Below are positions 39,265-41,231 of a DNA stretch of 64,000 bases, piece by piece (positions within the stretch are counted from its first letter, which is position 1; each line of letters begins with the position of its first letter). Source of the stretch: an uncultured Gammaproteobacteria bacterium (GTDB lineage: Bacteria > Pseudomonadota > Gammaproteobacteria > Pseudomonadales > Azotimanducaceae). Below the pieces are notes generated by a model that did not search any database, was not told where the DNA came from, and saw nothing but the letters and a program-made list of their open reading frames with translations. A program made the position numbers and the translations under genes. The stretch lies in the NCBI GenBank assembly GCA_913043815.1, contig CAJWNY010000004.1, positions 1 to 64,000 of the forward strand, in the 5' to 3' direction.

Positions 39265-40242
39265 TTGTTTAGCAAGAAAACAGACCGCCTTGACCCTTGG
39301 GCTAAGCCATCAGGTGGTTTTAACAATTGGCTAAAGGATCATGGGCGCACGTTTAATGATACGACGCTATATGTAAGCCAGCGCTTGGCTAGCAGCTTAT
39401 TTGTTTGGTTTTTAGTCGGTATCGCTCTAGCGCTTCCCGGCATACTTTGGCTAGCTCAAGTGAACCTCCATGTGGTTGGCGAGGGCTGGCAGGGTCGGGC
39501 AGGGTTGACCTTGTACTTCGAAGCCGGTGTTAAACCCTCCAAGATAGAGGCAGTTTTAAAAGACTTGAAAAAAATCCAGGTGGCCGACAAAACGGCGCTA
39601 ACAACATCTGATCAGGCGCTAAAAGATTTTGTCGCTCAAACATCGGGCTCCCTTGAGTTGCGTAACATTTTAGCTAGCCTCGATGAAAACCCGCTACCTG
39701 CGTCCATCCAAATTACTAGCCGCGAGGGCGCAGACTTTATCGAGCTTGAAAGCCTGCAAAGGCAGTTACGAGCTAAACCTCAGGTCAACGACGTAATCAT
39801 TGAAAAGACTTGGTTGGAGCGTTTGCGTGATATTACAAGTTTGTTAAACCGGCTAGGTTGGATATTGGGCTTGCTATTTGGTCTGGGGGCGATCTTTGTC
39901 ACTTCCGCATCTGTACGTTTAGCCATAGAGTCGCGCTTGGAAGAGTTGCTCGTTTTGGCCCTTGTAGGTGCAACCAAGGGGCAAATGCGTCGACCATTCA
40001 TTTATTTCGGAGCCTGTTATGGCTTAGGCGGTGGTGTGATGGCAGTGATGTTTTTAGCACTCATTCTTAATGCAATTGAAGGGCCGCTGCAGGCGCTGCT
40101 TAGCAGTTATCAAGTACCACTGGTCGTCCAAGGCTTCGACAGCCAGTTTTTAATGAGCATACTGGGAATAGGTATTGTTCTGGGTGTAATAGGTGCTTGG
40201 GTGGCGGTACGGCAACGTTTATACAGCGCGCAATTCCTGTAG
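39265..40242 (+). CDS. ftsX: Cell division protein FtsX
   Basis: TM/periplasmic loop/3 TM arrangement, 'VNDVIIEKTWLERLRDI', 'LEELLVLALVGATKGQMRRPFIYFGACYGLGGG'; TTG start. Confidence 0.93.
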   Translation: MFSKKTDRLDPWAKPSGGFNNWLKDHGRTFNDTTLYVSQRLASSLFVWFLVGIALALPGILWLAQVNLHVVGEGWQGRAGLTLYFEAGVKPSKIEAVLKDLKKIQVADKTALTTSDQALKDFVAQTSGSLELRNILASLDENPLPASIQITSREGADFIELESLQRQLRAKPQVNDVIIEKTWLERLRDITSLLNRLGWILGLLFGLGAIFVTSASVRLAIESRLEELLVLALVGATKGQMRRPFIYFGACYGLGGGVMAVMFLALILNAIEGPLQALLSSYQVPLVVQGFDSQFLMSILGIGIVLGVIGAWVAVRQRLYSAQFL

Positions 40243-40319
40243 TGGTAGTTTCTTTGCAACGCTGCGCGGCCTTCCCGGTTTTGAGCAACTTTTGTCAAGA
40301 TTTGTGGAACTTATTTTTG

Positions 40320-40346
40320 TTAGCACTCATTAAGTTAGAGTGCTAA
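40320..40346 (+). promoter_or_regulatory. CIRCE element (HrcA operator) upstream of rpoH
   Basis: TTAGCACTC-ATTAAGTTA-GAGTGCTAA: 9-bp half-sites match the canonical CIRCE consensus exactly with N9 spacer; ends 33 nt before the rpoH ATG. Confidence 0.93.
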
Positions 40347-40379
40347 TATTATGTTTATCGTGTTACCGGAAGTATCACC

Positions 40380-41231
40380 ATGACAACAAATATTATGGCA
40401 ATGCCAAGCATCGCTCCAGGCCGCGACCTCGATGCCTATTTACGTACAATCAGCCAATTTCCCATTCTCAAACCGGAGGAGGAAAAGTTACTTGCTGAGC
40501 GGTTTTATGCTGATCAAGATCTGGATGCCGCCCGCGAATTAGTGATGTGCCATCTGCGCTTTGTGGTTCACCTTGCTCGTTCTTATAAAGGCTATGGGCT
40601 TTCTCAAGCGGATTTAATCCAAGAGGGTAATGTAGGGTTGATGAAAGCCGTGAAAAGGTTCGACCCTAACGTAGGCGTACGTTTAATTTCCTTTGCAGTG
40701 CATTGGATTAAGGCCGAAATTCACGAATACATTCTGCGCAATTGGCGCATAGTCAAAGTTGCTACAACCAAATCACAACGGAAGTTGTTTTTCAATCTTC
40801 GTGGTGCCAAGCGCAGCAGTGCCTGGTTAAGTTTGTCAGAGACCCAAGCTATCGCTGAAGATTTAGGTGTTTCTGCGGCGGAAGTTACGCGCATGGAAGG
40901 CCGGCTGAGCGCAAGTGATATGGCATTCGATGGGTTTGGTATAGATGAAGAATCTGCAACCGCGCCAATGCATTTTTTGGCCTCGGCGGCGCCAGATCCA
41001 GCTGATCTTGTGGCAGATGAGCACATGCAACAAGACGCTAGCCTTCGCCTCAGCTCTGGACTTGCAGGTCTAGATGAGCGTAGCCGAGATATATTACAGC
41101 AGCGCTGGTTGAGCGATGACAAGTCTACGCTGCACCAACTCGCCGCTGAATACGGCGTCTCTGCTGAACGCATTCGACAGCTGGAAAAAAACGCAATGAA
41201 GAAACTCAAGCTGGCCATTACTGCAGACTAA
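40380..41231 (+). CDS. rpoH: RNA polymerase heat-shock sigma factor RpoH (sigma-32)
   Basis: 'DLDAYLRTISQFPILKPEEEKLLAERF', 'HLRFVVHLARSYKGYGLSQADLIQEGNVGLMKAVKRFDPNVGVRLISFAVHWIKAEIHEYIL', 'TKSQRKLFFNLR'. Confidence 0.97.
   Translation: MTTNIMAMPSIAPGRDLDAYLRTISQFPILKPEEEKLLAERFYADQDLDAARELVMCHLRFVVHLARSYKGYGLSQADLIQEGNVGLMKAVKRFDPNVGVRLISFAVHWIKAEIHEYILRNWRIVKVATTKSQRKLFFNLRGAKRSSAWLSLSETQAIAEDLGVSAAEVTRMEGRLSASDMAFDGFGIDEESATAPMHFLASAAPDPADLVADEHMQQDASLRLSSGLAGLDERSRDILQQRWLSDDKSTLHQLAAEYGVSAERIRQLEKNAMKKLKLAITAD

What the first reader, a model, noticed from the sequence alone, without database searches (positions are those of the whole stretch)
40320..40346. Perfect CIRCE (HrcA operator) directly upstream of the sigma-32 gene rpoH
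Seen: TTAGCACTC-N9-GAGTGCTAA with all 18 half-site bases matching canonical CIRCE, ending 33 nt before the rpoH ATG. A TAATAT hexamer overlaps its right arm (40344-40349) with a weak -35-like TTAGCA 18 nt upstream, so bound HrcA would block a promoter there. Established: CIRCE/HrcA classically represses groESL/dnaK operons, and in E. coli-type gammaproteobacteria rpoH is instead controlled by promoters and mRNA structure with no HrcA. Inference: here the HrcA repressor would sit above the sigma-32 activator, wiring two heat-shock systems in series. Whether rpoH-CIRCE has been described in other clades was not checked.
Basis: partly seen in the sequence, partly recalled or inferred. Interest (0 to 1): 0.72.

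Follow-up and report, generated by a model that had tools for sequence, protein, structure and literature searches.

The report
HrcA operator inside sigma-32 gene promoter
Just ahead of the gene for the heat-shock activator sigma-32 lies a perfect docking site for the heat-shock repressor HrcA, built into the gene's likely promoter, and the same arrangement recurs in very many beta- and gammaproteobacteria that keep HrcA, so in these bacteria one heat-shock switch probably controls the other.

Summary
A perfect CIRCE (18/18 arm bases) lies at 40320-40346, 33 nt before rpoH; it is the only site in the window with up to 3 mismatches. The genome encodes full-length HrcA, and its only two sites with intact core arms are at rpoH and groES. 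In the family, 40 of 58 rpoH genes examined carry a CIRCE (at most 2 mismatches), and at least 119 further loci occur across beta/gammaproteobacteria. In a class-wide sample it tracks HrcA (96/271 HrcA+ versus 8/98 HrcA-; p=4.5e-8, uncorrected for phylogeny). Alignment showed more: the right arm runs into an extended -10 (GAGTGCTAAAAT), with the hexamer's last T in 117/119 rpoH sites versus 6/42 groES CIRCEs. Most loci also carry a sigma-E-like promoter (GGAACTT-N16-TCTAA) whose -10 lies in the CIRCE; in this window's genus that element is off-spacing and no RpoE was found. Most likely HrcA covers the rpoH core promoter. Binding and transcript starts are untested. CIRCE upstream of rpoH was already listed for Geobacter sulfurreducens in 2004 (PMC545781). 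I found no description of the composite promoter, but a key 2003 beta/gamma survey was not readable.

The parts
40320..40346 (+). CIRCE, the HrcA operator (TTAGCACTC-N9-GAGTGCTAA)
   Evidence: Perfect match, single in window; conserved at the same place upstream of rpoH in relatives
40341..40349 (+). Extended -10 element TGC-TAATAT; its first six bases are inside the CIRCE right arm
   Evidence: Sequence; last T of the hexamer in 117/119 named rpoH-CIRCE loci versus 6/42 groES CIRCEs
40306..40312 (+). GGAACTT, a sigma-E -35-like remnant; spacing to TC is 14 nt, not the conserved 16, so probably not functional here
   Evidence: Sequence; canonical spacing from alignment of relatives; no RpoE above cut-off in this genus
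40380..41231 (+). rpoH, sigma-32 (283 aa)
   Evidence: TIGR02392 389.8 bits, above cut-off
39265..40242 (+). ftsX-like gene upstream of rpoH, following ftsY and ftsE; possible source of read-through transcripts
   Evidence: TIGR00439 best match at 227.2 bits, below its 255 cut-off; ftsY and ftsE pass theirs

Best explanation
The palindrome is a working HrcA operator built into the core promoter of rpoH. Without stress, an HrcA dimer on the CIRCE covers the stretch from the -35 region through the extended -10 (TGCTAATAT) and keeps RNA polymerase off. When heat or unfolded protein inactivates HrcA, rpoH transcription rises together with groESL, the other HrcA target in this genome. Restored chaperone (GroEL, by analogy with Bacillus) would then reactivate HrcA and close both promoters. 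Shown here: the site, the HrcA gene, the groES site, the conservation, the fused -10 and the association with HrcA. Inferred: binding, occlusion, heat induction and GroEL feedback. In many relatives a sigma-E promoter (GGAACTT-N16-TCTAA) runs into the same operator, so HrcA would also gate envelope-stress input; in this genus that input looks lost.
For: Perfect single site. Full-length HrcA. Only rpoH and groES have intact core arms in the genome. CIRCE with at most 2 mismatches at 40 of 58 family rpoH genes. At least 119 rpoH-CIRCE loci in beta/gammaproteobacteria. Association with HrcA, p=4.5e-8. A -10 fused to the right arm at rpoH but not at groES, p=3e-27. In degenerate sites the left arm has 27 mismatches and the right arm 12, as expected if the right arm doubles as promoter.
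Against: No binding or transcript data. The associations are not corrected for phylogeny. Several family members keep HrcA but have no recognisable rpoH CIRCE, so control is dispensable. Eight CIRCE+ genomes lack a detected HrcA, two of them nearly complete. The -35 is weak. ftsYEX read-through could supply rpoH transcript independently of this promoter.
Confidence: 0.82

Rival explanations
1. The inverted repeat acts mainly in RNA: a hairpin in ftsX-rpoH read-through mRNA that stabilises or regulates the rpoH message, as reported for the groESL CIRCE of Rhodobacter capsulatus (Jager et al. 2004, title seen in the reference list of PMC6238624).
For: The arms form an 11-bp stem in the predicted RNA fold. 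In Lysobacterales-type sites the change to TTAGCAGTC is matched by GACTGCTAA.
Against: In the window's family 12 of 13 TTAGCAGTC left arms face an unchanged right arm, which breaks the pair. A start site about 7 nt after the -10 would leave the CIRCE outside that transcript. The fold is weakly better than shuffles (z=-1.9). Association with HrcA is not predicted.
Confidence: 0.07
2. A relict: an ancestral operator that HrcA still binds, but rpoH output here is set mainly by other promoters, read-through and post-transcriptional control of sigma-32, so HrcA matters little.
For: Degenerate or missing sites in HrcA-positive relatives, especially in genomes with a second rpoH, where 7 of 17 keep it.
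Against: All three members of the window's genus keep a perfect 18/18 site although the spacer and flanks differ, which indicates current selection on the arms.
Confidence: 0.1
3. Chance palindrome without function.
For: None beyond the absence of binding data.
Against: Expectation is 0.01 per window even at 3 mismatches. The site is conserved in all three genomes of the genus with different spacer sequence. HrcA is present.
Confidence: 0.01

Closest known systems
CIRCE upstream of rpoH in Geobacter sulfurreducens (Rodionov et al. 2004, PMC545781, Table 8)
   Same: Perfect CIRCE close upstream of rpoH (position -51 there; the site starts at -60 here), in a genome with hrcA and a groESL CIRCE
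   Different: Different phylum; predicted only; that paper also lists CIRCE at hrcA-grpE-dnaKJ, which was not found here; no promoter overlap was described in the passages read
Classical HrcA/CIRCE control of groESL and dnaK operons (Bacillus and many others)
   Same: Same operator sequence, same repressor family, and a groES CIRCE in this genome
   Different: The target is a sigma-factor gene; the operator's right arm is the promoter's extended -10, which is not so at groES CIRCEs of the same class
E. coli rpoH P3, the sigma-E-dependent promoter (general knowledge)
   Same: Relatives of the window show a sigma-E-like promoter of the same form (GGAACTT-N16-TCTAA) directly upstream of rpoH
   Different: E. 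coli has no HrcA match (control genomes) and no CIRCE scheme; in this window the sigma-E element is off-spacing and RpoE was not found

Membership tests
HrcA/CIRCE operator | TTAGCACTC-N9-GAGTGCTAA sequence | tested here: met
   18/18 arm bases
HrcA/CIRCE operator | hrcA in the same genome | tested here: met
   TIGR00331 305 bits against a cut-off of 197.2; PF01628 5.4e-59
HrcA/CIRCE operator | Regulon includes a class I chaperone operon | tested here: met
   CIRCE with 2 mismatches upstream of groES
HrcA/CIRCE operator | HrcA binds the site and represses in a heat-sensitive way | not testable with these tools
   Needs EMSA/footprint and an hrcA mutant
Sigma-70 extended -10 promoter | TGnTANNNT sequence, conserved | tested here: met
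   TGCTAATAT at 40341-40349; last T in 117/119 rpoH loci
Sigma-70 extended -10 promoter | Mapped transcript start about 7 nt downstream | not testable with these tools
   Needs 5'-RACE or differential RNA-seq
Sigma-E (RpoE) promoter, this window | GGAACTT with 16 nt to TCNNA, and RpoE present | tested here: not met
   GGAACTT present but 14 nt to TC; no RpoE above cut-off in three genomes of the genus
Sigma-E (RpoE) promoter, related loci | GGAACTT-like -35 at conserved spacing, with RpoE in the genome | tested here: inconclusive
   Spacing met: canonical GAAC in 82/119 named loci, 56 at one exact offset versus about 0.5 elsewhere. RpoE tested only in the family: 15 of 16 with the motif versus 13 of 24 without (p=0.012, uncorrected)

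The most novel reading that the evidence does not exclude
A composite rpoH promoter is ancestral to the beta/gamma lineage: a sigma-E -35, then a CIRCE whose left arm and spacer hold the sigma-E -10 and whose right arm is a sigma-70 extended -10. One HrcA dimer would gate two sigma-factor inputs to sigma-32, and the E. coli/Pseudomonas scheme would be a derived state after HrcA loss.
Probability: 0.55. Interest if true: 0.65.

Novelty: new variant of a known kind. Interest (0 to 1): 0.52.

Why it matters
Textbook accounts set HrcA/CIRCE repression and sigma-32 activation side by side, and E. coli, which lacks HrcA, serves as the gammaproteobacterial model. If this holds, many beta/gammaproteobacteria (Stenotrophomonas, Nitrosomonas, Pseudoalteromonas, methanotrophs, Rhodocyclales and others) put the sigma-32 gene under HrcA, so cytosolic chaperone status would gate the whole sigma-32 regulon and, in many of them, also sigma-E input. 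One hrcA deletion and a few promoter mutants would test it directly.

Tried and rejected
Chance match: rejected. RNA hairpin: disfavoured. A functional sigma-E promoter in this window: rejected on spacing and missing RpoE, although common in relatives. Generic sigma-70 scan: no hit. Wider CIRCE regulon in this genome: only rpoH and groES have intact cores; with one mismatch allowed there are 20 places against 13 in the reversed control. The 3-mismatch site C27:23049 was not pursued. Assigning the window to Halieaceae: not supported, since its RpoH is no closer to Haliea than to Alcanivorax. Other proteobacterial classes: none of the roughly 110 genomes drawn outside the class matched the strict pattern. 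CIRCE at second rpoH paralogues: none with fewer than 6 mismatches. Literature searches gave only the Geobacter report as a direct precedent; Permina and Gelfand on beta/gamma/epsilon heat-shock regulons is not in the library and may already list rpoH sites.

Full report
OBSERVATION. The site is as described: TTAGCACTC-ATTAAGTTA-GAGTGCTAA at 40320-40346, no mismatches, 33 nt before the rpoH ATG at 40380. It is the only match with up to 3 mismatches in the window, where 0.01 would be expected. The downstream gene is RpoH (TIGR02392 above cut-off); upstream lie ftsY, ftsE and an ftsX-like gene.

THE GENOME. The genome (2.85 Mb in 133 contigs, about 90% complete) has one full-length HrcA (TIGR00331, 305 bits) followed by grpE and by dnaK and dnaJ (the last three named from their sequences). 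Searching for the arms with up to 3 mismatches gives the perfect rpoH site, a 2-mismatch site upstream of groES, and a 3-mismatch site that was not pursued. With only the core arms (GCASTC-N9-GASTGC) exactly two sites are intact: rpoH and groES. The groES site ends about 117 nt before its ATG, downstream of a sigma-32-like promoter (CTTGAAT-N13-CCTTAT) that could also be read as a sigma-70 promoter. No CIRCE with up to 3 mismatches lies at hrcA.

CONSERVATION IN THE FAMILY. rpoH was fetched from family members. Of 58 loci that could be anchored, 40 have a CIRCE with at most 2 mismatches: 33 of 41 in genomes counted as having one rpoH and 7 of 17 in those with a second paralogue (some loci are cut short by contig or fetch ends, so 40 is a lower bound). 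All three members of the window's genus have a perfect site with differing spacers. HrcA is present in 56 of 59 family genomes, so several genomes keep HrcA but have a degenerate or missing rpoH site. In degenerate sites at the homologous place the left arm has 27 mismatches and the right arm 12, as expected if the right arm has a second role.

BREADTH. In 369 genomes drawn from the class, 104 match and 271 have HrcA: 96 of 271 HrcA+ versus 8 of 98 HrcA-, Fisher p=4.5e-8. Six of the eight exceptions are below 90% completeness. The test ignores phylogeny, and the pattern is strict, so 35% of HrcA+ genomes is a lower bound. Genomes drawn outside the class gave no match.

THE SITE IS PART OF A PROMOTER. 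Aligning 80 named loci on the CIRCE shows that the right arm runs into a -10 hexamer: GAGTGC-TAAAAT, TAATAT, TAAGAT and so on, preceded by TGC, which makes an extended -10. The hexamer's last T is present in 117 of 119 named rpoH loci, against 6 of 42 groES CIRCEs collected from the same class (p=3e-27). The fusion is therefore specific to rpoH and is not a property of CIRCE as such. Upstream, GGAACTT is conserved 9 nt before the CIRCE; GAAC falls at one exact offset in 56 loci and within one nt of it in 82, against about 0.5 per offset elsewhere. Sixteen nt after it comes TCTAA, with TC from the left arm and TAA from the spacer. GGAACTT-N16-TCTAA matches the sigma-E promoter form (general knowledge; sigma-E drives rpoH P3 in E. 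coli). In the family the canonically placed motif goes with RpoE: 15 of 16 genomes with the motif have it, 13 of 24 without (p=0.012, uncorrected). In the window's genus the element is not canonical (GGAACTT at 40306-40312, 14 nt to TC) and no RpoE exceeds the cut-off in any of three genomes, two of them 99% complete. The CIRCE persists there without the sigma-E element, so it is not a by-product of it.

MECHANISM. HrcA on the CIRCE would cover the core promoter and exclude RNA polymerase. HrcA would thus repress groESL both directly and through rpoH. Heat or chaperone titration would release both; recovered GroEL would restore HrcA (known for Bacillus; inferred here). In relatives with the sigma-E element, HrcA would gate that input too. 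Binding, start sites and heat response are untested.

KNOWN OR NEW. CIRCE upstream of rpoH was listed for Geobacter sulfurreducens in 2004 (PMC545781). No other paper in the searchable library was found to describe it, but the beta/gamma/epsilon survey of Permina and Gelfand is not held and RegPrecise was not available. The operator at rpoH is therefore a known kind. The shared -10, the sigma-E overlap and the breadth in beta/gammaproteobacteria look undescribed as far as could be checked.

Noticed in passing
G001, G002, G008, G014, G020, G022, G024, G025, G030, G034, G038, G041, G046, G051-G054 (loci L056, L060-L074): A sub-group of the family carries a second RpoH paralogue (about 50-56% identical to the window's RpoH) with no CIRCE upstream; in these genomes the CIRCE of the first rpoH is often degenerate (7 of 17 intact).
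   Followed up: partly
G000, G021, G050: All three genomes of the window's genus lack an RpoE (sigma-E) match above the TIGR02939 cut-off, which most of the family has; the envelope-stress sigma factor may have been lost.
   Followed up: partly
L207 (G134:C39:147500-153500); similar spacing in G263:C33: In family f77 hrcA and the CIRCE-bearing rpoH lie about 2.5 kb apart, separated in G134 by one long coiled-coil-like ORF on the opposite strand.
   Followed up: partly
L188 (CAMAQZ010000013.1) and L147 (JAHEKG010000156.1): Records titled Klebsiella pneumoniae (MAG) and Rhodospirillales bacterium (MAG) carry the beta/gamma-type rpoH-CIRCE; the titles may be wrong.
   Followed up: no
groES CIRCEs in the class: groES CIRCEs have their own spacer and flank preference (GCACTCACT..., then GCTAACAA or GCTAACAG), distinct from rpoH CIRCEs; the reason is unknown.
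   Followed up: no
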